Virus record (IMG/VR): IMGVR_UViG_3300023245_000006
Span: 1 to 64,000 of that record
DNA from: a virus
Reading direction: 5' to 3' (one strand)
DNA: 64,000 bases
Part shown: one piece after another, positions 3,564-58,342 of the stretch
Position numbering within the stretch: the first letter of the stretch is position 1
Layout: each line of letters starts with the position of its first letter
Position numbers and translations under genes: made by a program
Notes under the pieces: model-generated
Database searches by the model: none
What the model was told of the DNA's origin: nothing
What the model saw: the letters and a program-made list of their open reading frames with translations, nothing else

Positions 3564-3614
3564 AAATAAAAAATAATTTTTGAAATGTGGACGGAATTAT
3601 GTAAATATAAACAC

Positions 3615-6600: not shown

Positions 6601-7649
6601 AAAAGGCTCGCATGATTATTGATGCATGTTTCGCGGGTGGTCAGGCAGAACCAGGATTGGTTTGGACCAACCACGATGATGCCGGACTAAATCCATGCGC
6701 AGAAATTTCTTTTTCTGGCTCCGTGGGAGGATTTGGTGTTTGTAACTTAACTGAGGTTAATGCGTCCAAATGTTTATCAAAAGAAGATTGGTTAAAGGCG
6801 GTAGAAACTGCTACAATTATCGGTACACTTCAAGCATCTTATACCAACTTTTCTTACATCCAGCCAGAATGGAAGAAAAATGCCGAACAGGAATCACTTT
6901 TGGGTGTTTCCATTACCGGACAAGCCGAAAATATTGCTATTTTAACCCCTGAAAATTTACAAGAAGGTGCGAAACTAGCAGTCGAAATTAATAAAAAATG
7001 GGCTGAAAAAATAGGTATTAATCCGGCTAAACGTATTACGTGTGTTAAACCATCAGGAACAGCCTCGTCATGGTTAGGAACTACGGCAGGAATCCATGCA
7101 GGTCATGCTATCAAATATCTACGGAGAGTCCGATTAGATAAGGAATCGAAATTGGGAAAGGCACTACAAAGATACTTCCCTAATTTCATCGTGCCCGACA
7201 CATTTAAAGAGGGTGATATTATTATACAAATTCCTATCAGTATGTATGAGACGACACTACTTCGAACACAGGAAACATCCATTCAGTTGTTAGAACGTAT
7301 GAAAAACGTATATGATAATTGGATTCTACCGGGGCATGTCGAAGGGGATAATACCCACAACGTAAGTCTAACAGTCAGCTACCATGAACATGAGAAGAAT
7401 AATATTAAAGAATGGATGATCGAAAATCGAGAATCCTACATTGGTATTAGTCTGATTCCGTTCGATGGTGGTGACTATGCATATTTGCCATATAGTCAAC
7501 CACCACACCCAGAAGTGTTCGATATTCTCGAAAAATCCTTTAAACAATGCGAAAAAAACTTTAAATTTGAAAATATCAAAGAAAAGAAGGATATGACCGA
7601 GCATAAAAATGAAGCGGCATGTGCGGGTGGTGCATGTCTCTTAGATTAA
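3615..7649 (+). CDS. nrdJ: Class II (B12-dependent) ribonucleotide reductase with two inteins
   Basis: About 1344 residues from the ATG at 3615; an ATG at 3585 is also in frame. Removing two inteins leaves a ~619-residue reductase. Extein landmarks include MQFSGEPIERRQNRAFNC, SGAGVGYSVKQ, VVVGGVRR-SATIVLF, GLNPCAEIS, CNLTEVNAS, KPSGTAS, DNTHNVSLTVS and a C-terminal CAGGAC cysteine pair for re-reduction. These fit the monomeric adenosylcobalamin-dependent RTPR-like class, which makes deoxynucleotides without oxygen dependence. No small subunit gene is seen nearby, as expected for class II. It supplies dNTPs for phage replication and works beside the dCMP deaminase gene at 59.9 kb. Confidence 0.93.
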   Translation: MSKEFLSNLVHHRTYAKYLPEHQRRETKYETITRNLEMHCKRFPHLREEITKAYDPVYKEMAIPAMRALEDSTPIRTDIGWSIVGEIKTGDMIFDSIGEPTCVEKVLKFDNVDLYDVCFSDGSKLTSCDEHLWVVASADDRLSGKTRIVTTKHIKEHLTQGKVNNFCIYNPKPIKLPHKELFIDPYIMGLWLGDGYSPEYQYSSSVEDSSFFSEQYKNAGYEGIQSKSTNIWTWTCRGLSTDLCKYDLINNKHIPQEYLNGSIEQRLSLLQGLIDSDGCIDKNGKVHFSNTNKKMISGIVELISSLGIKYTQEDIKPKSENHKPSHIIRFTSGLEISRLPRKKENIRKDILKQTEHRKIISVDFVKKGSATCFVVSSPDRTFLAGREMIVTHNCMQFSGEPIERRQNRAFNCTFLNITKFVDMADLFYQSMSGAGVGYSVKQRHISQLPIISDGINTEKFVIPDSAEGWSNSLIKLLENPDIQFDYSQIRLMGEPLSTGGTASGPKSLIHMHSNIRQILRKSIGKQLTSFETHRICCLISDCVVVGGVRRCLLGTDDVLTDRGCVKLRDVKNGDMVLTHKNRFQKVVSKVNNGSRNLLEIKTNIGSFFSTENHKWITATDLYGGVSEKLANELGVEDTLVFNKTKIEGTETQMPSSLEYTPPELTEDTAWFVGYFLGNGSCSVRKRADNANLDCKFRIAAPKNYPKIIEKIQNIFPLFIKTISLYERKKVVEFTTSRGNIAKWGLENLKQPNSPIKIPTWIMQAREEIRMAFIAGILDSDGTVRNETTEDGIGTGQVAIVSTKYENFAKELQSLISLSGIPTRRLVKHREQKSDEHIIKSISSSFRNILVEKISDYSIKIAHDYVVTKKSRESSGLSFLKNLASKHGEKYNLWNNNPHISYEIMQEKQAVDFIPVNILGVLKTNMEEEVFDIEVEEDHSFFINGILTHNSATIVLFDPEDTVMLNCKSGKWWEKYPELARANNSAVVNRADPQSEEKARMIIDACFAGGQAEPGLVWTNHDDAGLNPCAEISFSGSVGGFGVCNLTEVNASKCLSKEDWLKAVETATIIGTLQASYTNFSYIQPEWKKNAEQESLLGVSITGQAENIAILTPENLQEGAKLAVEINKKWAEKIGINPAKRITCVKPSGTASSWLGTTAGIHAGHAIKYLRRVRLDKESKLGKALQRYFPNFIVPDTFKEGDIIIQIPISMYETTLLRTQETSIQLLERMKNVYDNWILPGHVEGDNTHNVSLTVSYHEHEKNNIKEWMIENRESYIGISLIPFDGGDYAYLPYSQPPHPEVFDILEKSFKQCEKNFKFENIKEKKDMTEHKNEAACAGGACLLD
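3816..4793 (+). other. Intein 1 in nrdJ (326 aa, LAGLIDADG, Ala at position 1)
   Basis: The extein reads IPAMR then CMQFSG. The insert begins ALEDSTPIRTDIGW and ends MIVTHN before Cys+1. Blocks with LGDG and GLIDSDGCIDKNG are the two LAGLIDADG homing-endonuclease motifs. The first residue is Ala rather than the usual Cys or Ser, as in class 2 inteins, where Cys+1 attacks the junction directly. The Cys at +1 fits that. The insertion point lies in the conserved active-site region, typical of inteins. Confidence 0.88.
5265..6461 (+). other. Intein 2 in nrdJ (399 aa, LAGLIDADG)
   Basis: The extein reads VVVGGVRR then SATIVLFDPED. The insert begins CLLGTDDVLTDRG and ends GILTHN before Ser+1, giving a canonical class 1 Cys1/Asn-last/Ser+1 intein. 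Homing-endonuclease motifs FLGNGS and GILDSDGTV are visible. The insertion is in another highly conserved reductase motif. Confidence 0.92.
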
Positions 7650-9883: not shown

Positions 9884-11173
9884 TTACAGACCACAAAATA
9901 GTCTAAAAAGATAGTCGAAATTTTCCTTTACCGGACCAGTTTGTTCAGGTTGTTTATGGACAAAACCATAAACATAATCGATAATTTCGTTTGCTGTTTT
10001 TCGTATAACATCTTGATTTTGAGTGATATGCTCTGGATCAATTTTCCAAAGTGCCAAATATTTCGCAGCATGTTCACTACTCAAACCGAATTCTTCCAAG
10101 ACTACATATGCCACACCTTCGGCTTGAAGCTCTTTTATATTACTAGGAATTTCACCACGCATTCTAATTTCCATAGTATGAATCAATTCATGGGCAATTT
10201 CATGAACCATGGTCGATATATTTTTTTGTAGTAATTGTATCGAACCCACCGAACTCACACCGCGAGCATCACCCAAACCCTCGGAACCAATTTTTACCTT
10301 GATGTTTTTCATCTCGGCAAAACTCGATAGGGCCTCGAAAATGGATTCTGTGGTTTCGTCTAGATTTTCATCAGAATACCATTTTGGTTTTTCTGGTATC
10401 TTTGCAATATCTTCTTTACCCTCAATTGGTTCCGTATCAGAAATATCAAAAATTGGACCCAATTTAAATCGGGTGATTTTACGCACTTCATCATCTGGCG
10501 CAGGAACATGACCATCTTCGGGTTTATCTTTTACGATAATGGGGATAAAAATTTGTATACCCTTCGATCCTTTTTTTAATTTTCGTCCAAATTCTTTTTC
10601 CCATTTCACCCTACCAGCAACATGTGTTGCATCTTTTCTTTGTAGATATATGAGCATTTGGTTGTTGAATGAATAATTTCGGAATTTCTTTCTAAAATTT
10701 AGAAAATCTTGAATTTCTGGGGAATTAATATTTTCTTCTAGTTCCTTTTTCAACCTGGATAAAAAGTTTTCAATTTGATCTTGTGCTCCTAAATCAGCCA
10801 ATTCTTCGATTTCTTCGGATGCATCATCTAAATTTATAGGTGATGATCCAGATGATTTATTAAGAGACATGACCGCTTTCTTATATGTTGGAGCAGCTTT
10901 GTGAAAATCGGATTCCTCAAAACTATCCTTTGAAACCCATCTTCGAAGGTTCGCTTTATCAAAATAAAATAAACCAGTATCTCTAATACCAGTTTTCTTT
11001 TTAAATGTTTCGTTTCTTCCAGCAGAATCTGGCATATCACTATCAACAACAAAAATGAATTTCCCATCATCCATTCGTTTTCGTTTAAGGATTAAATTTT
11101 CTTCAATCGTTTCCGTGGGATTTAGTAGTTCCTTATAAAGATTTTCAAGAATTATTGTATCAACATCTCTCAT
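9884..11173 (-). CDS. ArdC-like antirestriction protein with capsid-targeting-like tag
   Basis: 429 residues. It starts with the shared tag MRDVDTIILENLYKELL. The middle carries the ArdC N-terminal ssDNA-binding pattern (DUF1738-like): YSFNNQMLIYLQ, ATHVAGRVKWEKEFGRKLKKGSKG, IQIFIPI. The C-terminal zincin has VHEIAHELIHTME and a downstream ELQAEGVAYVVLEEFG, giving HExxH plus Glu ligands. ArdC of plasmids protects incoming DNA from restriction. Combined with the tag, the protein is inferred to be packaged and injected. A late promoter TATAAATA lies 7 nt before the ATG. Confidence 0.85.
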   Translation of the reverse strand: MRDVDTIILENLYKELLNPTETIEENLILKRKRMDDGKFIFVVDSDMPDSAGRNETFKKKTGIRDTGLFYFDKANLRRWVSKDSFEESDFHKAAPTYKKAVMSLNKSSGSSPINLDDASEEIEELADLGAQDQIENFLSRLKKELEENINSPEIQDFLNFRKKFRNYSFNNQMLIYLQRKDATHVAGRVKWEKEFGRKLKKGSKGIQIFIPIIVKDKPEDGHVPAPDDEVRKITRFKLGPIFDISDTEPIEGKEDIAKIPEKPKWYSDENLDETTESIFEALSSFAEMKNIKVKIGSEGLGDARGVSSVGSIQLLQKNISTMVHEIAHELIHTMEIRMRGEIPSNIKELQAEGVAYVVLEEFGLSSEHAAKYLALWKIDPEHITQNQDVIRKTANEIIDYVYGFVHKQPEQTGPVKENFDYLFRLFCGL

Positions 11174-12105: not shown

Positions 12106-12325
12106 TTTGTTCAGAACTCCAACCATCGACATCATCGATTAGATCTGGGATGTTACCACCGATAGATTGTGCAAATCCTTCACCCTAAATGGTTTTGAAT
12201 ATCATTGTTATAGATATTTTCCGTAAACTTTGGATAGCATATTTTAATTTTTTTGCATAAGACCTGATGTTATTGAACTCTTCAAAGTTGAATGTTTCAG
12301 GGTATGATTCGGTTAAATATTTCAT
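12095..12325 (-). pseudogene. Truncated/interrupted small gene with in-frame TAG
   Basis: An ATG overlaps the stop of the upstream gene as ATGA at 12325-12322 and reads MKYLTESYPETFNFEEF and on for 46 residues to a TAG at 12185-12187. The same frame then continues as coding-like sequence (GEGFAQSIGGNIPDLIDDVD) to a stop at 12095. The start looks like a conserved T4-like phage N-terminus, but the body expected behind it is missing. Probably a decayed gene; readthrough cannot be excluded. Confidence 0.55.
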
Positions 12326-13770
12326 ACATTTCTATGGAAAAATTTCTTAAAGGATATCGATTCGGTTAAATTTAATTTATCTTTATCTTGGGGTTTAATA
12401 CCGTTTATAATAATGTCTGGAATGGGTTTTTTATTCCGAATTAATATATTCGCAACCTCAAAAGAACGTGCCCAATCTTTTGCAATAGAATTTAAAAACA
12501 TATCAGGAACGTCCTTTCCTTTTTCAATTAAAGCTTTGGCAAACTTATATGATTCATACGAATCTTTTGCAATAGAATTTAAAAATATATCAGGAACATC
12601 CTTTCCATTTTCGATTAAAGCTACTGCAAATCTATATGAACTATCCGAATATTTTGCAATAGAATTTAAAAATATATCAGGAAGGTCCTTTCCTTTTTCA
12701 ATTAAAGCTTTGGCAAACTTATATGATTCATACGAATCTTTTGCAATAGAATTTAAAAATATATCAGGAAGGTCCTTTCCATTTTTGATTAAGAATATAG
12801 CAAAATTAGACGATTCGTTTGAATCACCCGATCCGGCAAGAACATCACCTCTCTTTTTTATCCAAAGATTTTGTTCCGATGGTGTTAAGGATTTAAAATT
12901 CTCAGAATTGAGTTGATGACCCATATTTAAATATTCATTTTTTAAATTCTTATCTAAACATGATAAATCTGAAACCCCAAAACCACTTTTTATATATTCT
13001 TCTTTTTCTACATATTTTAGAGAATTGAACACATACACACTAAAATCATAGTTTAAAGATTCGTATTTTTTAATTTTTTGGATTTCTGATTCCAATAAAG
13101 GATCGTTTTTAAAAATACCATTAGAAAAAGGCTTAGATAGATCAGGAAAGGCTTCTACAATTTCTTCTTCGGTAATATCATCGGTTCCATGACCCTGAGA
13201 ACCATTATCAGCCCATGTCCATTGATATCGATCATCTGTTTGTGCATCGATAACAATATAATGACTAGGATCTTTAAACATACCTCTATCATCTTTTTCA
13301 GAAGTATTCTCTTTAAATCTCACAAAATAAAAGGTAGATGCTGCTCGTAACCTATATCCGGTCCATAAATTTCCTCCCGATGGTCGAGATACACAAAAAG
13401 AATAATAACCATTGTCACTTAGAATTATGGATTGTCCAGTGTTTGTAGATTTATACACGATTACCTCTGCATCCTCATAAACCTTTAGATCATCCTTAGA
13501 AACGCTCTCAACCTGTTTACTGGCACCCACCCTTGTCGAGTCGGTTGCATGTTCAAACTCATCGAATGTTTTATATTGAAATGGGTCTTTTTTTGGTAGC
13601 GTTGCACGAGCCTTCTCGAAGGTCGATATATAATCTCTGATAGTTTTTTCCGATAAATCGGTTGTTTTTTGAAAGTGGGCTACCATCATCGAAATCGCCT
13701 TTTCGGAGAATTCTAGTAGGAGAATATCTCGATAGAGTGTTTCTAAAATTAATGTGTCGTTGTCTCTCAT
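12322..13770 (-). CDS. Tagged repeat protein, candidate virion cargo
   Basis: 482 residues from the ATG at 13770 (MRDNDTLILETLYRDILLLEF). A central domain with EVIVYKSTNTGQS, YSFCVSRPSGGNLW, YIVIDAQTDDRYQW and a DLSKPFSNGIFK ending is also present, diverged, in the 881-aa protein at 39.4 kb. The C-terminal part is four 29-residue repeats (DIFLNSIAKDSYESYKFAKA then LIEKGKDLP), encoded by 87-bp DNA repeats at about 12480-12790. The start overlaps the GNAT stop as ATGA, so the two are translationally coupled. Function unknown. Confidence 0.75.
   Translation of the reverse strand: MRDNDTLILETLYRDILLLEFSEKAISMMVAHFQKTTDLSEKTIRDYISTFEKARATLPKKDPFQYKTFDEFEHATDSTRVGASKQVESVSKDDLKVYEDAEVIVYKSTNTGQSIILSDNGYYSFCVSRPSGGNLWTGYRLRAASTFYFVRFKENTSEKDDRGMFKDPSHYIVIDAQTDDRYQWTWADNGSQGHGTDDITEEEIVEAFPDLSKPFSNGIFKNDPLLESEIQKIKKYESLNYDFSVYVFNSLKYVEKEEYIKSGFGVSDLSCLDKNLKNEYLNMGHQLNSENFKSLTPSEQNLWIKKRGDVLAGSGDSNESSNFAIFLIKNGKDLPDIFLNSIAKDSYESYKFAKALIEKGKDLPDIFLNSIAKYSDSSYRFAVALIENGKDVPDIFLNSIAKDSYESYKFAKALIEKGKDVPDMFLNSIAKDWARSFEVANILIRNKKPIPDIIINGIKPQDKDKLNLTESISFKKFFHRNV
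12480..12790 (-). repeat. 87-bp tandem coding repeats
   Basis: The string TTTTGCAATAGAATTTAAAAA recurs with exact 87-nt spacing (TGC at 12481-range, 12568, 12655, 12742), coding a 29-residue solenoid-like unit. Copies are very similar at DNA level, so copy number may vary between strains. Confidence 0.8.
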
Positions 13771-14222
13771 AATTCCTTTTCCCATATAACACCATCGATG
13801 TGAGTAAATCCAGCCCTTTTCACCATATTTAACACCAACTCGCTATGAACTTCTAGATGGATAGCATCGGCCATTTCATTTTTTGCTTCGTTCAATCCCT
13901 GATTAAACAACATTCTTCCGATACCCTTTCCCTGATAATTCTCGTCAACGATAATATCGAACGAATATTGTCGTCCCATACCTTCATTATAAGAACTTCC
14001 GAATAGTGCCCCGACGATAATTCGATAACCTTCTTGTGGGGATGGTATAACTTCCAGAGCACCCATCAATTCTTTATCACTCAAAATATTTATCGGTGCA
14101 TTGGAGGCCAGATCCCATGCACCATCCATAACCTCTTGATCTTCAACATCAACCCATTCATATTGTTCGTTCGATACCGAATCATAAAGATTTTCTAAAA
14201 TTAATGTGTCGTTGTCTCTCAT
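13767..14222 (-). CDS. Tagged GNAT N-acetyltransferase, candidate virion cargo
   Basis: 151 residues. The N-terminus MRDNDTLILENLYDSV shares 30 identical nucleotides with the start of the downstream gene (13741-13770 against 14193-14222). The rest is a GNAT fold with the acetyl-CoA loop VDENYQGKGIGRMLF (Q-x-x-G-x-G/A) and a C-terminal MVKRAGFTHIDGVIWEKEL. The substrate is unknown. GATAAATA at 14230-14237 lies 7 nt before the ATG. A packaged acetyltransferase would act early on host targets. Confidence 0.82.
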   Translation of the reverse strand: MRDNDTLILENLYDSVSNEQYEWVDVEDQEVMDGAWDLASNAPINILSDKELMGALEVIPSPQEGYRIIVGALFGSSYNEGMGRQYSFDIIVDENYQGKGIGRMLFNQGLNEAKNEMADAIHLEVHSELVLNMVKRAGFTHIDGVIWEKEL

Positions 14223-15952: not shown

Positions 15953-17575
15953 ATGGACAAAGAAATTATATTAAAAAAATACGGTAGGATTTATAGACTT
16001 TATCCTACAAAGGATCAAATCAAAATTTTCCAAGATTGGCAAAATGGTGCCAGAGCATATGGCAATGAAATTTTATGGAATCAAACAGTTTCGGAAAGAT
16101 TTTTCGATGAAAAGAAACGAGATATCGTCGAACTTAAAATAAAGGCACTTACCGATGTTGGAAAAACCGAAGAAGAAATTAAGGTTCTAAAAGATAAAGA
16201 CTTCTGGGTTACTATTAATAACCAACTCTCGGACCAATATCCGATCAAAGACGCGATTCGTAATGGTTTTAAAGAAATCAGGACAGAATTAACCATAGAT
16301 AAGAAGGGACCAGATCGAGAACTTTTAGATAAGATTATATTAGAAAGATATCCCAATTATGTTGATCTAAAAGATTCATCTAAAAGTTATCTGGGTGCAT
16401 GTGGAGAGGGAGGAATGTATAAGGTCGGAACCGGAAAATATAAACTACCTTCGGCACTGGTCATAGGGATTTTAAAATCTAATGATAAGGCATGGACCAC
16501 GTTCTACGAAATTTGTAAGAACGGAAAAAGTGTTCAACATCTCGTTGGTGCAAAAAAGAAAAAAGCCGCAAAAGGAAAGAGAGTTGATAATTTCGGAAAA
16601 CCCAAGTTTATGAAAAAGTGGGAAATTCCTAATCTTTTATTTTCTACCGGAAATCTGAAAGGACCGAATTTTGAAAAACAACAGGTATTTATTCAAACTT
16701 TGAAGACACCGATCAAGGCAAAATTAGATGTTTATCCCATAGGGATTATCACTTCTTATACAGTTTCAAATATAGGTAAGAAGTGGTTTATTTCTTATGG
16801 TCTAAAGACCAATGTAATAGAACCAGAACATCAACACATCGAATCACAGGTAGGGCTAGATTTGGGTGTAACCAAATTCTTGACCACCACCGATAGTTCC
16901 CAAAAGACCCGAATTTTTGAATTAGACAAAACCTCTAAGAAAAGACTGGCGATTTTGAAAAATCGGGTGAAGATGATCCAGACGATTATTTCGAGATTAG
17001 AACGAGCCGAACCGATGAACTATATAGAAATCAACTGGAAACTAAAAATGTCCGACAAGACAAATCCAGATTATAAACATTTCCAGAGACATAGTAATAA
17101 TTGGTTTAGATCAAATCAAAAACTGGTTGAAACGAAATATAAAATCAATGAAATTTTGAAAAATTTTAGACATCATGTTTCTAATGTGATCACCGATAAA
17201 TATGGAACCATCGGGATAGACAATCTACAAATTTCTAACATGACCAAATCCGGTAAAGGAACCAAAGATGAACATGGTAAAAATGTTAAACAAAAGGCAG
17301 GTCTGAATAGGTCGATCTTGGAACAGGGTTGGGGAATTTTTAATAACCAATTGAAATATAAGGCATCATGGAGAGGTGCAAAGGTTATCGAAATCGATCC
17401 TAAATACACTTCCCAGACATGTCCCGACTGTGGACACGTTTCCAGAGACAATAGAAAGACACAGGCAAAGTTCGAATGCATTGATTGTGGACATAGTGCC
17501 AATGCCGATGTGGTAGGATCACAAAATAATTTGAAAAAGATTAATAAAAAGGTTGCAATACCTGAGACTTTGTAG
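15953..17575 (+). CDS. TnpB/Cas12f-like RNA-guided RuvC effector of a compact type V-like CRISPR locus
   Basis: 540 residues, longer than a typical ~400-aa TnpB. The N-terminus KKYGRIYRLYPTKDQIKIF and GNEILWNQ match the TnpB/Cas12f WED-REC start. RuvC-I is VGLDLGVTKF (D303). The RuvC-II position reads GTIGIDNLQISNM, with D423 where Glu is standard. The zinc finger is C490/C493 and C509/C512, and RuvC-III is ANADVVGSQN (D519). About 130 extra residues lie between ~50 and ~180. A structured RNA with an anti-repeat and a CRISPR array follow on the same strand, with no cas1/cas2, so it is read as a Cas12f/type V-U-like effector rather than a transposon TnpB. The E-to-D change could weaken or abolish cleavage and favour a binding role. 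Confidence 0.88.
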   Translation: MDKEIILKKYGRIYRLYPTKDQIKIFQDWQNGARAYGNEILWNQTVSERFFDEKKRDIVELKIKALTDVGKTEEEIKVLKDKDFWVTINNQLSDQYPIKDAIRNGFKEIRTELTIDKKGPDRELLDKIILERYPNYVDLKDSSKSYLGACGEGGMYKVGTGKYKLPSALVIGILKSNDKAWTTFYEICKNGKSVQHLVGAKKKKAAKGKRVDNFGKPKFMKKWEIPNLLFSTGNLKGPNFEKQQVFIQTLKTPIKAKLDVYPIGIITSYTVSNIGKKWFISYGLKTNVIEPEHQHIESQVGLDLGVTKFLTTTDSSQKTRIFELDKTSKKRLAILKNRVKMIQTIISRLERAEPMNYIEINWKLKMSDKTNPDYKHFQRHSNNWFRSNQKLVETKYKINEILKNFRHHVSNVITDKYGTIGIDNLQISNMTKSGKGTKDEHGKNVKQKAGLNRSILEQGWGIFNNQLKYKASWRGAKVIEIDPKYTSQTCPDCGHVSRDNRKTQAKFECIDCGHSANADVVGSQNNLKKINKKVAIPETL

Positions 17576-39423: not shown

Positions 39424-42069
39424 TTACCTGAAAAAGAAGTCCCTAAATCGCCCAAATGATTCATTTCGGGTCTTTGTAGCAACCTTTTCGATAGTTTCTT
39501 TTTGTGTATCGGTCAGTTGATCCATCAAAATTTTGGGTGGTACCATTGCCGGATCGTGAACATATGTCATGTGATATACTATACTATTAACAATTTCATT
39601 ATCTTTCAAAATTGGTTTAAAATATGCATCTGGGATGTCTTTGATGTTATCATTGATCAGCCCTTTGAGGAACCTAATAGCAGTCGGGATCGTAGAAAGG
39701 GCACTTTCTATCAATTCTTTTGGAACCTTTTCAATCATTTTTCCATGGTTCATGTCTTTATAGTTTTTGGGAGCATCTCGTTCTATAATTTTAAAGATCA
39801 TTTTGGTTGCCGTTTCGGGATGGAGTGCAATTACCTTGATCCATTTATCAGGAATTTCTTCGCCTTTATCGATGAATTTTCTGTATACAAATTTAGCCTG
39901 TGTTGAAGATGACCCTCCTTTTATGATCCCATCTACAATATATTCAGGGATCTTGGCACCCATTCTTTTAGATAAAATATGCACCACAAAGTCGTCCAGA
40001 ACCAAATCATCATCTAAAATTGGTTCTATCAAATATTTTGGATATGCATCGATTGGAATAAAATCGGCCATATTAGCACGTTTATAAACATCATAGGATG
40101 CTCGTGCTGATTTAGAAATAGTATCTAATAATTTCGGAGGAATATTATGCAGATCGACATCTCTGAGCATAAAGATCGCAACATCCCTAGACAGTGTATA
40201 ACTCTTGGCTAGTGCTTCAATAACCTCATTCGGTAGTGTTAAATCATCGGCCTTTTTTAATAATTCTTGCGATATGTTAAGTACATTGTATTCTAGTGCT
40301 CCACCTGCGGTTGCCAAAGCCGTGTCTCGAATCTTTTGAGGGATACGATAATAATCAACACTATTTCTAATGGCTCTTTGAATAAAGTTAGATGAGTTTG
40401 AAGTATCAGAAGAGATTCGATCAATTAAAGATTCATGAATTTTTTGATTGTTATTGATTAAAAATAGTGCTGTTTTAAATGCTGATACCTCATTTTCGAT
40501 TACGGCACCGATTAGTTCATCCGTAATTGGAATTTTTTTATCCATTAAAAATGTTATATAGTCGGCACTTGCATATGGACTTTGTAAAATTTGATTGTGA
40601 ATAGCTTCAGGAACCTTTAGGTTATTTGATAGTAACTTTTCGGCAATATTAACCGAAAATGATGGGCTATAAAGAGCCACTCTCTGATATAGTCTTTCAT
40701 CTATTGGTTGTTTCTTATCAAGTAGTACACTTAGAATATCATAAATGGTTTCTGGTGATCCGGTGGTTAATATTCTTTTATAGACTTCTTCAGGAACATC
40801 CGATAATGATCTTCCATTATCTATTAGTGTCACAACATACATTCCGGCCTTGGTAGAATTTGATAATAGTGTATCAATGAAATTTTGCGGAACTTCTTTT
40901 ATCTGTCCTAAGATTTTCAATTCGTCTGGGGTGAAATCAAATTCATCATCGTCGTCCCATGCACCCAATTCTCGTTCTACGTTTTGTTTCTTCTTGTCCC
41001 AATATCTCTTCTTTGGTGCCGGATATTGATCTAAGGTTTCATAATCGAGATTAATGTCTTCGTCTTCTGAGTTTTCAACGGCTACTTCGAGAACAGGCTT
41101 AACCAGATCTCTTTGCCTGATATTTTCCCAATCTTCTTTAGTTAGGTTATGAAACGAAGTATACATTAAGATGTCTTCCAAAGTTTTAAAATGTTCGACT
41201 CCATTTTCCTCATAGAACTTTTCATAATATTCTTGTTCTTTTCCGGTGATCGGAACCGATTTAAAGATTCCTTGATCAAATGCACGTTTAAGATCTGGAT
41301 ACTTTTTGATGATCTGTTTGGGGGTGGAACTATAATCATGATTCTCTTTGACGTTGTTGTATTGATAACCACCATCTTCGACTGCATCGACCAAGATATA
41401 TCTATTTTCTTTCTTTAGCCATATAAAGTATGTGGTTAGTTTCTTCTCCCATCTATAAGAATGGTAGTAGTGACTAGCCGATGAACCGGAAATACAAAGA
41501 TTAGTTCCTTTACCGTATTTCTTACAGCTAGAAACAGATTTTCTAGGATCATCGGAATTGTTAGATAAGAACACGGTAATGTTTTCATCATCATATACTT
41601 TATTAGGATCTGCATCGGTTCCTAAGACGTGCAATTCTTGATTTGCACGTCCTTCTGACATTTTGGAATGAATCTGTTCGGTCCATTTAAGAAAATCTGG
41701 TGCCTTATGGATGGTTTTTTGGTTGAAAAGTGATGCTTGCTCGGTGTAATCCTTATATTCTTTACTTAATAAGTTGATATTGGCCCCTGCTACTAAGAAA
41801 TTGGTAAGAGGAACAATGTCTGAAAGGTTTTTATCCTTTGGGTTGTATTTGGTAATGATCTCGGCTAATGATTCGACGGTTCCGTTCCATTTTGTCTTGG
41901 CACTGTCAAAGGCATCTTTGTTCTCTGGGTTGTTCTTGGCCTTAAAAACTTGGTATCCGATTTCTTTTTTAACCAAAATGTTTAGTGCCTGCGCCTTACT
42001 AGATTCTGCATCTTCTTCCAAAATTGATAGGTAGAGGCTTTCTAACAGAATTGTGTCGTTATCGCGCAT
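39424..42069 (-). CDS. Large tagged repeat protein, candidate virion cargo
   Basis: 881 residues starting with the shared tag MRDNDTILLESLYLSILEED. Residues ~150-290 match the central domain of the 12.3-kb protein (DDENITVFLSNNSDD, CKKYGKGTNLCISGSSAS, YILVDAVEDGGYQYN, DLKRAFDQGIFKSVPI). The remaining ~500 residues are degenerate ~30-residue helical repeats with IP-x-x-L/I-x-x-x-I motifs (VPEEVYKRIL, VPEAIHNQIL, IPPKLLDTIS). Function is unknown; a packaged effector with a solenoid is a reasonable guess. TATAAGTA lies 7 nt before the ATG. Confidence 0.8.
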   Translation of the reverse strand: MRDNDTILLESLYLSILEEDAESSKAQALNILVKKEIGYQVFKAKNNPENKDAFDSAKTKWNGTVESLAEIITKYNPKDKNLSDIVPLTNFLVAGANINLLSKEYKDYTEQASLFNQKTIHKAPDFLKWTEQIHSKMSEGRANQELHVLGTDADPNKVYDDENITVFLSNNSDDPRKSVSSCKKYGKGTNLCISGSSASHYYHSYRWEKKLTTYFIWLKKENRYILVDAVEDGGYQYNNVKENHDYSSTPKQIIKKYPDLKRAFDQGIFKSVPITGKEQEYYEKFYEENGVEHFKTLEDILMYTSFHNLTKEDWENIRQRDLVKPVLEVAVENSEDEDINLDYETLDQYPAPKKRYWDKKKQNVERELGAWDDDDEFDFTPDELKILGQIKEVPQNFIDTLLSNSTKAGMYVVTLIDNGRSLSDVPEEVYKRILTTGSPETIYDILSVLLDKKQPIDERLYQRVALYSPSFSVNIAEKLLSNNLKVPEAIHNQILQSPYASADYITFLMDKKIPITDELIGAVIENEVSAFKTALFLINNNQKIHESLIDRISSDTSNSSNFIQRAIRNSVDYYRIPQKIRDTALATAGGALEYNVLNISQELLKKADDLTLPNEVIEALAKSYTLSRDVAIFMLRDVDLHNIPPKLLDTISKSARASYDVYKRANMADFIPIDAYPKYLIEPILDDDLVLDDFVVHILSKRMGAKIPEYIVDGIIKGGSSSTQAKFVYRKFIDKGEEIPDKWIKVIALHPETATKMIFKIIERDAPKNYKDMNHGKMIEKVPKELIESALSTIPTAIRFLKGLINDNIKDIPDAYFKPILKDNEIVNSIVYHMTYVHDPAMVPPKILMDQLTDTQKETIEKVATKTRNESFGRFRDFFFR

Positions 42070-48762: not shown

Positions 48763-49215
48763 TTAAGAAAGTAATTTTATTAGATTTGTTGTATAATCCA
48801 TAAACCCATTTCGTTCCATAGAACCATCTGGAAAAATTATATATATTTTTTTATTTTTCTTTTTAGAGTATCGGATGGTTGCCCATGTTCCTGATCTAAC
48901 TTGTTCGATTTTACTACTAGGACATGCTATCATGATATTCGATGCGTCCACAATATCATGATTCCTTGCAAGATATTCTTTAGATTCGAGAACAACTCCA
49001 TCCTCACAAAACGATCTTTTAATCTCGTTGATCGGTGGATGGATAATAATCTTACCGGACGAGACTTCTTTATAAATATTATGAGCATCCGTATCTGCTC
49101 CGATACAGTCTCCATGATGAAATTCAACAGAGACTATATCAGAAAAGATACTTAGAACAACGTGCTTTTGCTCGTTACTCATACCAACTTGATTACCAGT
49201 AAATCCAAATTTCAT
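48763..49215 (-). CDS. SLOG/DprA-like nucleotide-binding protein
   Basis: 150 residues. FGFTGNQVGM, then HHGDCIGADTDAHNI and CPSSKIEQVRSGTWATIRYS show the Rossmann-like SLOG pattern (G-D-C-x-G-A-D and a late R-S-G-T-W). SLOG proteins bind nucleotides and often appear in defence or counter-defence. The start overlaps the RNA ligase stop. Confidence 0.75.
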   Translation of the reverse strand: MKFGFTGNQVGMSNEQKHVVLSIFSDIVSVEFHHGDCIGADTDAHNIYKEVSSGKIIIHPPINEIKRSFCEDGVVLESKEYLARNHDIVDASNIMIACPSSKIEQVRSGTWATIRYSKKKNKKIYIIFPDGSMERNGFMDYTTNLIKLLS

Positions 49216-50321
49216 GATTTTTTAAGGACTTGCCAAAAAATCTTTATGATTTGATCATGTGTTAAATTTTTTCCATCCAATTTAGAGAAACAAAAAGACG
49301 CTCTATTTGTTGGACCATATGATTCTATAATCATCTGGGCTTGTTCTTTTCTCGTTTTTAAATTTTTTATAGTTCTTACGAAATCATTAATATGATCTAA
49401 TATTCGATTCACTTCTTTTGCACCATCAGATAGTCTCGAAATTTGACCACGGAGTTGTTCTGCAATCTCATGATCGAAGCTAGTTTCGATCAGGTTGTAA
49501 AAACCTTGGTAATCAGGCATATCATTTTTGACATAGAATTGAATCAGGTTATTTTCAGAAGATAATTCGGACTTGATTCGATGTTTTACAAGGTAGGCAT
49601 CAGCTTTGGTTTTTTTCAAAACTTGACCATTATTTCCATAAATAACTATACCCTCACCCTTTGTCCATTTTTCTACATCGTTCACCATATCTTCGATGGA
49701 GGGAAACAAATAACGAGATGGTCGTTTAACCCCAAAAGAAATAGCCACATCATCTAATTTGTCTTGTATAATATACGTATAGTGTGGGTGTTCTACGATT
49801 CCGGTCAACCACAATTCGGGTTCCAAACTTTCACGCTCCACTATTATATTTACTGGAGAATACCATTCACATATAATAGAATATCCTTCACTATCCAACA
49901 AATCATTATCAAACAATCTAGGATATTTATCTTTGAGAATCGGTATTTCGTAACCGTTTTCCATCGTTGATTCGGCATCAACCGTTCCTCGGGTTCGCAC
50001 GATTAATTCTTTTTTAAATTTGGATATAATCAAAGCCGAACCATCCATCTTACGAATATATTCAATATCACCTTTAATATTTAAAGGTTCGAACTCTGGT
50101 TGCTCTGGTAAATTTGTAAATTTTCTATAAGATGCGCTCACGAGTTCGCCATCTTCGGTCCATATGGAACTTCTGAAATATTTGTTGGTTTCATCCCACT
50201 TGACACCAATTTGTCGGGGGAATATAAGTTTACACGTTGTATTTGATATAATACAATCTCGTATATAAAACTCTTCTTCTGATGGAAACCTGTCAATTTT
50301 CATACCGTCTATATTATCCAT
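49212..50321 (-). CDS. RNA ligase, T4 Rnl1-like
   Basis: 369 residues. Nucleotidyltransferase motif I KMDGSALI, then IVRTRGT, GYSIICEWYSP, EGIVIYGNNGQVLKKTKADAYL and a helical C-terminal domain, as in T4 RNA ligase 1. It would reseal tRNAs cut by host anticodon nucleases. A second, different RNA ligase lies at 54.7 kb. Confidence 0.88.
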   Translation of the reverse strand: MDNIDGMKIDRFPSEEEFYIRDCIISNTTCKLIFPRQIGVKWDETNKYFRSSIWTEDGELVSASYRKFTNLPEQPEFEPLNIKGDIEYIRKMDGSALIISKFKKELIVRTRGTVDAESTMENGYEIPILKDKYPRLFDNDLLDSEGYSIICEWYSPVNIIVERESLEPELWLTGIVEHPHYTYIIQDKLDDVAISFGVKRPSRYLFPSIEDMVNDVEKWTKGEGIVIYGNNGQVLKKTKADAYLVKHRIKSELSSENNLIQFYVKNDMPDYQGFYNLIETSFDHEIAEQLRGQISRLSDGAKEVNRILDHINDFVRTIKNLKTRKEQAQMIIESYGPTNRASFCFSKLDGKNLTHDQIIKIFWQVLKKS

Positions 50322-51681: not shown

Positions 51682-52545
51682 TTACTTCAAACAATTGTTG
51701 TAGTCCACTCGGGAAAAGTTAGGAACTCCGAGTCCGGTTAGATTGTTATAGAGGAATGTCACCGTCTTACCGATCCATTGATCTTTATCGTCCAAGAATT
51801 TTTTAGCCTCTTCTTGGGTTCCTTTGAACGAAGCATCAAATTCTTTTCCGTTCCATTTAAGAGTAATGACCTTACCCATCCCTGCCCAATTTCCGGTCCC
51901 TTCTTTGATATCTAAGATTTCGGCTTCTGAATCATCTGTCTGCTTCATTTTGAGAAGATTTGCAGATCGTTTGTTTTCATAAGGTGCATTAAGTAACCTA
52001 ATGATTGATCCTTCTTCACCATCCTCAACCAATTTTCCAAAATGCTTATAGATGTCTTCAAGGTTGTTACACATGACATTCTGAACCAATTTGATATAAG
52101 GAGTCGTTTCGAGTTCGATACTGATCCGAGCATATCTCGACATGTAAATAGATTCTTTGGTAACATTTCCTATATTGTATCCATCGTAAACAAAGAACCG
52201 AACCCGTTGTTCACTGTTCTTCAAATGTTCTGGTGTGATATGGACACTCCGACGAATCAATTTCATCGTTTCGTTCAATTTATCTTTGAGACCATCACCC
52301 ATCAATTCACCATCTAAAACCGCATCGGGATATACCGCGAAGAATCCTTTCAAAGCATCTTCGATATGAGGCACTGTCATATACTTTTCACCCTTACGAG
52401 TGTATAGACCTTCTTTGGTTGCAATGCCGCGACAATTATGTGCTAAAATGCCATTAGCATAAAAGTTATGATTTCCTACGATTTCTAAATCGTATCGATT
52501 TTGCGGTGGTATCTTTTTTATAGATTTAATTTTTACAGTTTTCAT
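51682..52545 (-). CDS. Split intein C-part + C-terminal half of ATP-dependent DNA ligase
   Basis: 287 residues. Residues 1-37 (MKTVKIKSIKKIPPQNRYDL...FYANGILAHN) are an intein C-fragment ending His-Asn, followed by Cys+1. Residues 38-287 are ligase: CRGIATKEG, AVLDGELMGDGL, RFFVYDGY, EGSIIRLLNAPYE, LLKMKQ and an OB-fold. Trans-splicing with the product of 53452-54126 would restore a ~370-aa ligase. Joins nicks in phage DNA. Confidence 0.9.
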   Translation of the reverse strand: MKTVKIKSIKKIPPQNRYDLEIVGNHNFYANGILAHNCRGIATKEGLYTRKGEKYMTVPHIEDALKGFFAVYPDAVLDGELMGDGLKDKLNETMKLIRRSVHITPEHLKNSEQRVRFFVYDGYNIGNVTKESIYMSRYARISIELETTPYIKLVQNVMCNNLEDIYKHFGKLVEDGEEGSIIRLLNAPYENKRSANLLKMKQTDDSEAEILDIKEGTGNWAGMGKVITLKWNGKEFDASFKGTQEEAKKFLDDKDQWIGKTVTFLYNNLTGLGVPNFSRVDYNNCLK

Positions 52546-53392
52546 TTATAATTTTCTTTATTTTATCTGGATTTTTTCGAATGTCAAGCTCCCATAAAAC
52601 AATCACTTTATATCCAAAATCTTCTATGTGATGAATTCGTATTTTATCCTTTTTTCGAATCTCTCTCGCCGTTTTATTTCCACCCCAAATCGGAATTATA
52701 TCCGTTGCTTTATATATTTTGGGATTTCCATGCCAGATATCACCATTTATCTCTATAACAATCTTTTTAGATTCTATCAATATGTCCGGTCTGGGACAAA
52801 ACTCTCGATTCAATTTTTTATTAAATTTAAAGAATCTATGTTGTGGTTCATATTCGAATTCTATGTTCAATTCTTTTAACATATCCTCTACGATAATTTG
52901 TAACTTGCTTCTATATCCGCTATGTTTTGGACGATTTGGAAGATAATTTGGGTTTGTGACTCCATATTTTGTCATCAGAGTCTCTTTACTTTTTTCTTTC
53001 GTCGATTCTAACTGAAACACGTTCGCAATATTATACCTATTCTTTACTGTTTTATTCCTTTTTTTATAAAATCTGGAATTTTTCGACATAGGATGTTCCA
53101 TACCATATCTCGTATCACATGTTTCTTTAAATTTGTTGCGAACTTTGGGATTATTGGCAGAATCTACCATGGTCGGTGTATCTATTCCATAAGTTTTACA
53201 ACGATATATGATCGCCGCCGCAGACATTTTTATACCCCTCGGTTGAAGAATATTCTGGGCGATGAAATTCATACTAAATTTATGGAAATTCACGACTTCG
53301 TCCAAAAATTCTTTCGAGATTATCCCTTTTAAATATTTTCTTCGAGTCCAGTCATTTGGATGTCGAGATATAATCTCCATATCTATTTTCAT
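52526..53392 (-). CDS. Homing endonuclease, Vsr/EDxHD-like, inside the fractured ligase
   Basis: About 288 residues from MKIDMEIISRHPNDWTRRKY (a GTG 27 nt upstream is in frame). The C-terminal part SKLQIIVEDMLKELNIEFEY...FCPRPDILIESKKIVIEING-DIWHGNP...VIVLWELDIRKN has the Vsr-like fold pattern (PDI, E-I-N-G, D-I-W-H, W-E). The N-terminal part is a DNA-binding region. It overlaps the intein C-part gene by 20 nt. This layout is known as a fractured gene. Confidence 0.82.
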   Translation of the reverse strand: MKIDMEIISRHPNDWTRRKYLKGIISKEFLDEVVNFHKFSMNFIAQNILQPRGIKMSAAAIIYRCKTYGIDTPTMVDSANNPKVRNKFKETCDTRYGMEHPMSKNSRFYKKRNKTVKNRYNIANVFQLESTKEKSKETLMTKYGVTNPNYLPNRPKHSGYRSKLQIIVEDMLKELNIEFEYEPQHRFFKFNKKLNREFCPRPDILIESKKIVIEINGDIWHGNPKIYKATDIIPIWGGNKTAREIRKKDKIRIHHIEDFGYKVIVLWELDIRKNPDKIKKIINENCKN

Positions 53393-53451
53393 TTTTTTAA
53401 ATTTTTCTAAATGGTTCACATATATACTTACACATAAAATACAATGGTTTG

Positions 53452-54126
53452 TTATTTTTTTAATGCCAATACATCGCTATCCTTTATTTGATCGACCCGT
53501 CTCCAACACTTTAATCTTGGTAGATATAGCCTATGATTACCCGTGACCTGTATTTTTTTACCATTCATCAATTCTATTTCGAACCAATCGGGATTTTGTT
53601 CCTTTTCATCGAAACAATCTTTAAACCCCATTTTAATCGGTTTAAATTCGGTTTTCCTACTTACCATATTATAAGTCAAAACTTCACAATCGATATTATT
53701 CTCAACGATATCACCGATATTAATATCTCCTAGATTTGTAGTAATTTTTGTATCATAGGCAAAACATCCATTATACTTCACCTGTGAGACGCATGGATAA
53801 GTAATCTTTTTGATACGATCCTTGAAGTTCTTGGCAAGCATAGGCTCGACGAATGACATCTTACCAATATCATCGATATTTTCAAAATACCCACCCGATT
53901 TCTTTTTCTTTTTCCACATGGCTTCGGCTTCGAATAGTGCCTGTGCTTCGGGATCGCGTTGATTGGCTCGACCAGCATTGGTCATAACCGTATCGGTCCA
54001 TGCTGCCTCGACGATCTTTCCATCTTTCTGACCATAACGGGTGGTGAAAGATCCACCATCAACAATAACCTCCCATTGTTGAATTGCACCAGTCGAAGTG
54101 AGTGAATATAGAATAGGTAATTTCAT
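53452..54126 (-). CDS. N-terminal part of DNA ligase + split intein N-part
   Basis: 224 residues. Residues 1-120 are the ligase N-terminus up to the active-site motif VSQVKYNG (K117; Asn replaces the usual Asp of KxDG). Residues 121-224 are an intein N-fragment starting CFAYDTKITTNLG with the VTGNHRLYLP block. The split falls right after the catalytic lysine motif, so neither half can be active alone. Confidence 0.9.
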   Translation of the reverse strand: MKLPILYSLTSTGAIQQWEVIVDGGSFTTRYGQKDGKIVEAAWTDTVMTNAGRANQRDPEAQALFEAEAMWKKKKKSGGYFENIDDIGKMSFVEPMLAKNFKDRIKKITYPCVSQVKYNGCFAYDTKITTNLGDINIGDIVENNIDCEVLTYNMVSRKTEFKPIKMGFKDCFDEKEQNPDWFEIELMNGKKIQVTGNHRLYLPRLKCWRRVDQIKDSDVLALKK

Positions 54127-54746: not shown

Positions 54747-55793
54747 TTATTTCTTTGCATCGTAAGGGCTTGATATAAACTTCACGCTCCAATTCTTACC
54801 CAAAACGTTAGACCTGATAGGCTCTACAGTTTTAAGGACAAGACCTTCACCATCGGTCTTACCGTTGTCGTATTTAACACTATCGGCAATAATTTGCAAT
54901 TCTTCGAGGGAAGGCATGTCTTCGACTTTGAAACGGAATAATTCTTCTACAGGTTGCAAGTAATCGCTACGCATACAAAACTCCAACACATCATCCCAAG
55001 AAAACCAATTTCCACCATCAAGATTTTTGATTCCAAAGATAAACATATGTTGTCCTTTAAGGTTCATTTTATTTCCTTGAATACCTTCACCACAGATTTC
55101 TGATTGAATGGCCAAATTCCGACCATCCAATTTGAGAGTGTCTTCGATCTTGTATTTTTCGGCCATCTTCCAAAAGGTGTTGTTTTCATCCTTTTTAAGT
55201 TCAAGGTTACGAGAACAAACACGCAAATGATTTCCTTGGATAGTTCCGTACCAATTAAAAAACGTTCCCGAAGAACCATCACACTTAGTTGTGGCTACGA
55301 GTTCTTGTCCTTGGAACCTATCTTCTTTCAATTCCAAGATTGCATCTGGGTTACTTCGGTAGTTATCTTCATCCGTTTTCGAAACGATGAAAGTTGGGAA
55401 ATCGCCAAGAGCGATTCCGGCTAATTGTGATGACATCGGTGTTTCATATTTTTCGATGTTTAGATATTCTGCAACATCCATTCCCTCTTCCAAAACCAAT
55501 CCATCATTGAGAACCTCAAATCCCAATACGGATGCTGGGAGAACTAGACCAGCGGAAAACTGCCCCCGCATTTTCATGGTTTTGAGACGAATTCTTTCAT
55601 TTCCTTCATACGTTGAATCGATAAGTTTCTTATCGATTAGGGTATCGGGAAATACAAAAATAACAGTATCTCCAACTTTATGTAGACCTTTTCTAACCAC
55701 GCAATACCACCCCAATACAAGCGAACGTTCGATAAAATCCGAATTTGGGATGGGGGTTAATTCTAAAATTTTGGTGACTTGTGTTAATTTCAT
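54747..55793 (-). CDS. RNA ligase, DraRnl/Rnl5-like
   Basis: 348 residues. An N-terminal OB-like domain (LELTPIPNSDFIERSLVLGW, RKGLHKVGDTVIFVF) precedes the ligase core TTKCDGSSGTFF, CSRNLELKKDE, AIQSEICGEGIQGN and DGEGLVLKT. This order matches the Deinococcus Rnl-type RNA ligases that seal 3'-OH/5'-P nicks. It lies two genes from the DNA ligase. Confidence 0.85.
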   Translation of the reverse strand: MKLTQVTKILELTPIPNSDFIERSLVLGWYCVVRKGLHKVGDTVIFVFPDTLIDKKLIDSTYEGNERIRLKTMKMRGQFSAGLVLPASVLGFEVLNDGLVLEEGMDVAEYLNIEKYETPMSSQLAGIALGDFPTFIVSKTDEDNYRSNPDAILELKEDRFQGQELVATTKCDGSSGTFFNWYGTIQGNHLRVCSRNLELKKDENNTFWKMAEKYKIEDTLKLDGRNLAIQSEICGEGIQGNKMNLKGQHMFIFGIKNLDGGNWFSWDDVLEFCMRSDYLQPVEELFRFKVEDMPSLEELQIIADSVKYDNGKTDGEGLVLKTVEPIRSNVLGKNWSVKFISSPYDAKK

Positions 55794-56867: not shown

Positions 56868-56960
56868 TTATTTAAACCAAAGAAGAATTCCAGCCCAGAA
56901 CAAAAATCCCATACTTATTAAGATAAGTGCGATCACATCACTCATAGTTCCAATTTTCAT
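56868..56960 (-). CDS. Tiny membrane protein, 30 aa
   Basis: MKIGTMSDVIALILISMGFL and on, one membrane span. Its ATG overlaps the stop of the inserted TnpB gene. Confidence 0.45.
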   Translation of the reverse strand: MKIGTMSDVIALILISMGFLFWAGILLWFK

Positions 56961-58342
56961 TGAGAAATCTGTGGTGCCCTGTTGGACAACAACGATTCCA
57001 TTGGTTTTTGAGCCTGACGGACTATAAGCTCGTCAGTGGGAGGACTGGAACTGTTCCAATAGAACCCGGAACGGTTCCAGTGTTGCTCCCGAGCAGCCTT
57101 CGGCAATAAAGGAAGGTCAAGGCTAATGTTCACGGAGCCATTCATATCTGCATTCTGTGCGTTTCCGCACCCTTTGCAAACGAACTGTTCTCCGCGTCTA
57201 TTAGCCTTCTGCACCCATCCGCAGCACGAACATCGCTGGCTGGTAAACATCGGATTTACCTCAGACACTTGGACGCCAAGTGATTGAGCCTTTTGTTTAA
57301 CGGCGTTTAGTAGCTTTGTTGCGCTCCAGTGAGAAAGTGATTTTGAGGTTCGGCGACCTCGCTTTAGATGTTTGATGCGTTCCACGCGAACAGACGCGAC
57401 TCCCGTGAAATTGAGCCGATTTACGGATTCGCCCACGAAGTTTCGGCAGTGTGATTCGGCGCGTTTAAAGCCGTCACTCCCGCGCTTGCATCGCGCCATC
57501 TTATTGTTTATATCTTTGAGGGACCATCCGTGGTTTCCCGTTTTGATCTGTGAACCATCACTCACCGAAAAGATGGACGTTTGCCCGATGTCAATGCCTA
57601 TTGCGGGAACAATTCCTATTGCGGGAACAACTCCTATTGAGGAAAGAGTCAATTCCGCAGGTTGCGGCTCTGGAATCTCAAAGGATAACGAGACCTCTGT
57701 TTTGGACATTCGAACGCTATTGAGGCGCGTTCCAGTCTCTTGTATGGAGTTAAAATGCTTGTGGTAATTTAGAGGAATTAGCAACTTCTCGCCGCGAATG
57801 CCCGTTGGGCCTCCTACAACCTTGGTGTCTTTTACGCCCGTGGTGTCCTTTGTGCCCTTGGCACCCCTCAAACTCTTGATCGTAAGCCACGCATCAAAAC
57901 TCGTTGAAATAGAAGGGTTTAGATCGAAGAATCTGCTATCTAGTTGAGCCTCAACGTGATTCGTTGCTGGACAAGAGACCTTGTTTTTTTCAATGATTGC
58001 TCGCAGAACCCGTGCCTTCTTGTGTTGCCCTGCTTTTTCAAACTCCTTTACTTGCCATTCTCTGCGCTTATTCTTCGCAAGACTGCCATTGGCAATGCCA
58101 CTAGATTGTTTCGCGGCACACTGAATTGCTCTCGCAGAAAGCCAAGTTTGAACGTTCGTAATCTCGCCGCTAGGCATCTGTTGTACTTGCTTCCCATCGT
58201 TCAGCTCGTGCCAAAACCGCCCCACGAATTCTGTCACGACGCGTGCATATTCGTCTAGGAATTCAGCAACCTTTTCGCTTTTATGAGCGTTAGCGAATTT
58301 AAGCGTTAGCCGAGACGAACGGATGTTGCGTTTTTTCTTCAT
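56957..58342 (-). CDS. tnpB: IS605-family TnpB (RNA-guided nuclease)
   Basis: 461 residues. RuvC-I AIGIDIGQTSIF (D251), RuvC-II VRVERIKHL (E321), zinc finger C371/C374/C389/C392, RuvC-III AQNADMNGSV (D399): the catalytic set is intact. A small duplication (VVPAIGI) precedes RuvC-I. G+C is clearly richer than in the phage, so it is recently acquired. No tnpA is present, so it would need help to move. It is unlike the 540-aa CRISPR-linked effector in length and sequence. Confidence 0.9.
   Translation of the reverse strand: MKKKRNIRSSRLTLKFANAHKSEKVAEFLDEYARVVTEFVGRFWHELNDGKQVQQMPSGEITNVQTWLSARAIQCAAKQSSGIANGSLAKNKRREWQVKEFEKAGQHKKARVLRAIIEKNKVSCPATNHVEAQLDSRFFDLNPSISTSFDAWLTIKSLRGAKGTKDTTGVKDTKVVGGPTGIRGEKLLIPLNYHKHFNSIQETGTRLNSVRMSKTEVSLSFEIPEPQPAELTLSSIGVVPAIGIVPAIGIDIGQTSIFSVSDGSQIKTGNHGWSLKDINNKMARCKRGSDGFKRAESHCRNFVGESVNRLNFTGVASVRVERIKHLKRGRRTSKSLSHWSATKLLNAVKQKAQSLGVQVSEVNPMFTSQRCSCCGWVQKANRRGEQFVCKGCGNAQNADMNGSVNISLDLPLLPKAAREQHWNRSGFYWNSSSPPTDELIVRQAQKPMESLLSNRAPQISQ

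What the first reader, a model, noticed from the sequence alone, without database searches (positions are those of the whole stretch)
51682..54126. DNA ligase fractured by a split intein with a Vsr-like homing endonuclease between the halves
The N-half ends after motif I KYNG plus intein N-part, a 288-aa endonuclease gene follows, then intein C-part (37 aa) plus the ligase C-half. Fractured genes of this type are known from marine metagenomes for other genes. The break lies immediately after the catalytic lysine motif, so activity depends fully on trans-splicing.
Basis: partly seen in the sequence, partly recalled or inferred. Interest (0 to 1): 0.75.

Follow-up and report, generated by a model that had tools for sequence, protein, structure and literature searches.

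The report
Phage DNA ligase fractured by split intein
A tailed-phage DNA ligase gene is cut in two right at its catalytic lysine by a self-splicing protein element (split intein) with a DNA-cutting homing gene between the halves; the arrangement is a known kind, but here one mobile element family is seen to sit at the same catalytic motif in several different ligase families.

Summary
On the minus strand lie an N-half (120-aa N-extein ending KYNG + 104-aa intein N-part), a Vsr-like homing endonuclease (297 aa, GTG start, rather than 288), and a C-half (37-aa intein C-part + 250-aa C-extein). All class 1 splicing residues are present; the best solved match is the NrdJ-1 intein. The endonuclease model matches Vsr (Z 12.3) and I-Bth0305I (Z 11.4), with catalytic residues kept. 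No other DNA ligase was found in the two virus records, though both may be incomplete. This is a "fractured gene" of the kind described in 2009. What I add: (1) 79 of the 80 closest ligases are intact; fractured alleles scatter over the ligase tree (at least 6-7 changes). (2) L181 is an empty-site sister of two fractured alleles and keeps the +1 Cys. (3) Intein and endonuclease are under purifying selection, and one allele pair shows they moved as a unit. (4) The same endonuclease family sits at motif I of two DNA-ligase types and at least two RNA-ligase types, and once free-standing beside an intact ligase. (5) Split inteins with other endonucleases occupy KxDG| in DUF6267. Trans-splicing and homing are inferred, not shown.

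The parts
53767..54126 (-). N-extein of ATP-dependent DNA ligase (120 aa), ends in motif I KYNG; catalytic Lys117 codon 53776-53778
   Evidence: (phrog_114 4.2e-15); alignment with intact ligases
53452..53766 (-). intein N-part (104 aa + stop): Cys1, block A, block B TGNH
52526..53419 (-). Vsr-like (EDxHD-type) homing endonuclease gene, GTG start, 297 aa; 32 nt after the N-half stop, 20 nt overlap with the C-half; E178, D212, H230, D258 = putative active site
52435..52545 (-). intein C-part (37 aa): block F YDLEIVGNHNF, block G AHN
51682..52434 (-). C-extein of DNA ligase (250 aa + stop), +1 Cys; nucleotidyltransferase motifs III-V and OB domain
52560..52587 (-). promoter-like TTGACA-N16-TAAAAT (11/12) inside the 3' end of the endonuclease gene, just upstream of the C-half start; same position and spacing in L080, L081 (11/12) and L082 (10/12); suggestive only
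49212..50321 (-). intact RNA ligase (phrog_562, motif I KMDG), neighbour, not invaded
54747..55793 (-). intact RNA ligase (phrog_968, motif I KCDG), neighbour, not invaded

Best explanation
It is a fractured DNA ligase gene of a tailed phage. A class 1 split intein sits between Gly120 of motif I (K-Y-N-G) and the following Cys, and a free-standing Vsr/EDxHD-type homing endonuclease gene lies where an intein normally carries its endonuclease domain. The two halves are made as separate proteins. IntN (104 aa) and IntC (37 aa) associate, splice in trans (Cys1 thioester, transfer to Cys+1, Asn cyclisation) and give a 370-aa ligase with restored motif I KYNGCRG. The endonuclease cuts intein-less ligase alleles near the motif I codons during co-infection, so that recombination copies intein, endonuclease and the adjacent +1 Cys codon into them. 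Shown here: the anatomy, motif conservation, predicted Vsr fold and active-site residues, purifying selection in relatives, patchy distribution with an empty-site sister allele, and one case of the element moving independently of its flanks. Inferred: splicing, cleavage and homing themselves.
For: Both halves match the ligase family and both intein parts match inteins. All class 1 residues are present: Cys1, TGNH, block F Asp/His, His-Asn, +1 Cys. The endonuclease C-domain is Vsr-like by fold (1cw0 Z 12.3; 3r3p Z 11.4), with D212/H230/D258 aligned to Vsr D51/H69/D97 (Vsr numbering of the catalytic residues from my own knowledge). Other fractured ligases split at the same residue: L080-L083, L085-L092, L098 with the endonuclease, L037 and L055 without. 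Ka/Ks for the L080/L081 pair: IntN 0.16, endonuclease 0.18, IntC 0.04, exteins 0.09-0.11. L086/L087: intein+endonuclease pS 0.19-0.30 against 0.51-0.74 in the exteins, so the element moved as a unit. Ligase tree: 7 changes; one clade of the fractured type-A alleles is rejected, p-AU 1.5e-44; the window's ligase groups with intact L166-L169 at 100/99. Empty-site sister L181, KMDG|CRAIV in one frame. No other DNA ligase in the records.
Against: No experiment. Neither virus record is shown to be complete, so a second DNA ligase cannot be excluded. This intein's own sequence is known from one virus only (two nearly identical records); selection was measured on relatives. IntN/IntC charge segregation is weak (0 / +4). 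Transcription and translation of the three genes are not known.
Confidence: 0.9

Rival explanations
1. The halves do not splice but assemble non-covalently into a working ligase; the intein parts act only as a docking device.
For: Phage Aeh1 NrdA and other endonuclease-split enzymes work as two chains (PMC2988022).
Against: Cys1, block B His, HN and +1 Cys are all kept, and intein parts are under purifying selection in relatives. The break is inside the active site, next to the catalytic lysine.
Confidence: 0.05
2. A decaying remnant: the ligase is dead, and the phage relies on a host ligase or an unseen second ligase.
For: The virus records may be fragments, so another ligase could be unseen.
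Against: All five segments are open and keep their family motifs. Ka/Ks is well under 0.3 over extein and intein segments in the related pairs computed. No other DNA ligase in about 122 kb of combined records.
Confidence: 0.04
3. The endonuclease is not a homing enzyme for this site but a free-standing gene that happened to insert here.
For: L084 carries a 44% identical endonuclease free-standing just downstream of an intact ligase with no intein.
Against: Nearly all of the closest relatives of this endonuclease in IMG/VR lie in the motif I intein of a ligase gene. In L086/L087 the endonuclease and intein share a history that differs from the exteins.
Confidence: 0.08

Closest known systems
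Fractured genes (Dassa et al. 2009, NAR 37:2560; paper not held, content from memory and from citing papers)
   Same: Enzyme gene broken by a split intein with a free-standing endonuclease gene in between; Vsr-like endonuclease in many loci; phage genes.
   Different: Host gene and site: here ATP-dependent DNA ligase, directly after motif I. I could not check whether DNA ligase was among the eight enzyme types of that paper.
NrdJ-1, gp41-1 and IMPDH-1 split inteins (metagenomic, fast-splicing)
   Same: Same architecture, a long IntN and a short IntC; NrdJ-1 is the best PDB match (9e-10).
   Different: Other host genes; this intein has not been tested.
I-Bth0305I / EDxHD (Vsr-like) homing endonucleases
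   Same: C-terminal Vsr-like catalytic domain (Z 11.4) behind an N-terminal helical, repeat-rich region.
   Different: I-Bth0305I belongs to a group I intron (from memory); this one is associated with a split intein.
Pseudomonas phage MIJ3 PolB split intein with HNH endonuclease (PMC6892783)
   Same: Isolated phage, replication gene fractured by split intein plus endonuclease.
   Different: DNA polymerase B and an HNH enzyme.

Membership tests
Fractured gene (split intein + free-standing endonuclease) | Conserved enzyme gene in two ORFs, each ending or beginning with an intein part | tested here: met
Fractured gene (split intein + free-standing endonuclease) | Separate endonuclease gene between the two intein parts | tested here: met
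Naturally split class 1 intein | Cys/Ser1, block B TxxH, block F Asp/His, penultimate His, terminal Asn, +1 Cys/Ser/Thr | tested here: met
   sequence read directly; TGNH
Naturally split class 1 intein | Trans-splicing activity | not testable with these tools
   needs co-expression of the halves
EDxHD / Vsr-like homing endonuclease | Vsr fold of the catalytic domain | tested here: met
   predicted model: 1cw0 Z 12.3 over 113 residues at 3.0 A; 3r3p Z 11.4 over 94 residues at 3.4 A
EDxHD / Vsr-like homing endonuclease | Conserved E, D, H, D active-site residues | tested here: met
   E178, D212, H230, D258 invariant in A1; D212/H230/D258 aligned to Vsr
EDxHD / Vsr-like homing endonuclease | Site-specific cleavage and homing | not testable with these tools
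   only indirect: patchy distribution, empty site, element moved as a unit
ATP-dependent DNA ligase (phrog_114, PF01068) | Motif I lysine, EG motif IV, K.K motif V and OB domain in the joined exteins | tested here: met
   KYNG, EGSIIR, LLKMK kept in alignment A2; PF01068 8.9e-12, OB 1.6e-5. KxNG instead of KxDG is shared with intact relatives L166-L169 and L208

The most novel reading that the evidence does not exclude
One lineage of Vsr-like endonuclease with its split intein parasitises a catalytic motif rather than a gene: motif I (K-x-D/N/H-G|) of the covalent nucleotidyltransferases. It has jumped between non-orthologous enzymes (two DNA-ligase types, two or more RNA-ligase types) because the motif is conserved. 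Other split inteins with unrelated endonucleases converged on the same K-x-D-G site in RNA ligases and in DUF6267, which is then a divergent nucleotidyltransferase.
Probability: 0.5. Interest if true: 0.65.

Novelty: new member of a known kind. Interest (0 to 1): 0.52.

Why it matters
It gives natural comparisons for how split inteins and homing endonucleases spread: fractured alleles, split alleles without the endonuclease (L037, L055), a contiguous large intein (L064), a near-identical empty site (L181), and an intact ligase with the endonuclease free-standing beside it (L084). The break inside the active site makes ligase activity a direct readout of trans-splicing. Its relatives are a source of new, possibly orthogonal split inteins at Gly|Cys, Gly|Ser and Gly|Thr junctions.

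Tried and rejected
Fetching Dassa 2009: not held, and no held paper that I searched names DNA ligase as a split-intein host, so priority for the ligase site could not be settled. Single-sequence scan for the endonuclease found only the same virus; the alignment scan worked. A scan of bacterial and archaeal genomes gave one weak partial match in Bacillus, so no host lead. hhalign of DUF6267 against ligases and RNA ligases gave no support beyond the shared intein part. A model of the DUF6267 C-part ranks T4 RNA ligase 2, DNA ligase 1 and other nucleotidyltransferases high in VIA-align, but only at Z 4.4-6.1 and mixed with unrelated helical proteins; Foldseek alone gave nothing: suggestive only. 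Intrinsic terminators: none found, promoter-like counts at chance level overall.

Full report
What is there. The window is part of a 96.7-kb IMG/VR virus record. On the minus strand, in order: an N-half (53452-54126), a 297-aa endonuclease gene (52526-53419) and a C-half (51682-52545). The N-half is 120 residues of ligase ending ...VSQVKYNG followed by 104 residues of intein (C1, block B TGNH). The C-half is 37 residues of intein (YDLEIVGNHNFYANGILAHN) followed by 250 residues of ligase beginning CRGIATK. Joined, the exteins make a 370-aa ATP-dependent DNA ligase (phrog_114; PF01068 and OB domain). The joined intein is closest, among solved structures, to NrdJ-1, then DnaX, Npu DnaE and gp41-1. 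A RIIA homologue and other phage genes in the window mark a tailed phage.

The endonuclease. Relatives of the same kind align from the GTG at 53419, so the gene is 297 aa long. An AlphaFold2 model from seven sequences (mean pLDDT 80) places residues about 169-297 in the Vsr fold: 1cw0 Z 12.3 (113 residues, 3.0 A), I-Bth0305I catalytic domain Z 11.4 (94 residues, 3.4 A). D212, H230 and D258 align with Vsr residues that I number D51, H69 and D97, and E178 is invariant. The middle carries repeated KYG...N motifs (DUF7487), probably DNA binding.

Same site, many loci. A DNA pattern for K-Y-[DN]-G-C-[x]-x-x-D-T and one for K-x-D-G-C... were scanned over IMG/VR; the second gave 61 stretches. By eye 11 are chance, 2 are Hint domains elsewhere, and 48 are inteins at K-x-D-G|: 15 in DNA ligases, 4 in RNA ligases, 29 in DUF6267 (Pfam). 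Most are split. DNA ligases of the window's kind are split with the Vsr-like endonuclease (L030/L083, L035/L080, L070/L081, L026/L082), split without it (L037 69 nt, L055 98 nt between the halves), or hold a contiguous large intein (L064). A second DNA-ligase type (L023/L085, L025/L089, L057/L090, L086, L087, L091) carries the same endonuclease family; its intact relatives are in Bacillus and Vibrio phages. DUF6267 carries other endonucleases, one of them endonuclease VII-like (L017).

The endonuclease family follows the motif. A scan with the endonuclease alignment returned 170 relatives, 80 kept. The closest are in fractured DNA ligases. The next ones sit at motif I of RNA-ligase-like genes, K-x-H-G|T (L093, L095, L097, L111) and K-x-D-G|S (L094, L099, L100, L149). 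In the endonuclease tree the DNA-ligase and RNA-ligase sets are separated by a starred branch, 97/97. L084 holds a 44% identical endonuclease 48 nt downstream of an intact ligase (KLDG|MRC) with no intein. More distant relatives lie in other genes or stand free.

Mobility. Of the 80 best ligase relatives in IMG/VR, 79 are intact; after KxDG they have I, V, M, L or A, T once and Cys only once. That one, L181, is an almost identical sister of the fractured L080 and L081 in a careful tree (100/99) and reads KMDG|CRAIV in one frame: an empty site, either never filled or emptied with the co-converted Cys left. On the ligase tree fractured alleles need at least 6-7 changes, and a single clade is rejected (p-AU 1.5e-44). 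The window's ligase groups with intact KYNG ligases (100/99), while its intein and endonuclease are nearest to L080/L081 (IntN 50-56%, endonuclease 50-51%, IntC 70-73%, C-extein only 37%). In L086 against L087 the intein and endonuclease differ at pS 0.19-0.30 but the exteins at 0.51-0.74, so intein and endonuclease moved together. Ka/Ks is low in intein and endonuclease alike (at most about 0.23).

Expression. The C-half start overlaps the endonuclease gene by 20 nt in the window, L080 and L081, and by 28-41 nt in many others. A TTGACA-N16-TAAAAT element lies 14 nt upstream of the C-half start, and the same position and spacing are kept in L080, L081 and L082 (11, 11 and 10 of 12; codon-shuffle 0-0.025), though not in L083 or L085. 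This was noticed after the fact and is only suggestive of a promoter for the C-half.

Second ligase. No other match to PF01068, phrog_114 or the NAD-dependent ligase domain was found in this record or (for the last two) in its near-identical partner, which by its coordinates extends about 25 kb beyond it. Two intact RNA ligases flank the locus. The records may be incomplete.

Known or new. The arrangement is the fractured gene of Dassa et al. 2009, down to the Vsr-like endonuclease. That paper was not held, so whether DNA ligase was already listed is open. I file this as a new member of a known kind. What looks less well known is that one endonuclease lineage occupies the same catalytic motif across several nucleotidyltransferase families, and that other endonucleases are found at K-x-D-G| too. 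That DUF6267 is itself a nucleotidyltransferase is only suggested.

Noticed in passing
window 3585-7649 (+): Class II-like ribonucleotide reductase (phrog_367) of 1354 aa that holds two contiguous intein-like inserts of LAGLIDADG size (ends THNC and THNS); so this phage carries at least three inteins.
   Followed up: partly
window 15953-17575 (+) and 56957-58342 (-): Two TnpB/OrfB-like transposase genes with zinc ribbons in a phage genome (phrog_506, phrog_12300).
   Followed up: no
L017, L020-L022, L024, L027-L029, L031, L033, L034, L036, L041, L042, L044, L048, L051, L052 and others: DUF6267 (phrog_455, common in cyanophages) is fractured at K-x-D-G|S by split inteins with several non-Vsr endonucleases; its C-part model resembles nucleotidyltransferases weakly.
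   Followed up: partly
L086, L087, L089-L091 and L093, L095, L097, L111: Block B of these split inteins reads TGND or TGNN instead of TGNH, an unusual loss of the conserved His in otherwise well-kept inteins.
   Followed up: no
L084:1470-3535: Intact DNA ligase with a free-standing endonuclease of the same family directly downstream and no intein: a possible intermediate or remnant.
   Followed up: partly
window 39424-42069, 12322-13785, 9884-11173 (-): Several large ORFs start with a similar MRDxDTxxLExLY leader peptide, perhaps a shared processing or targeting signal.
   Followed up: no
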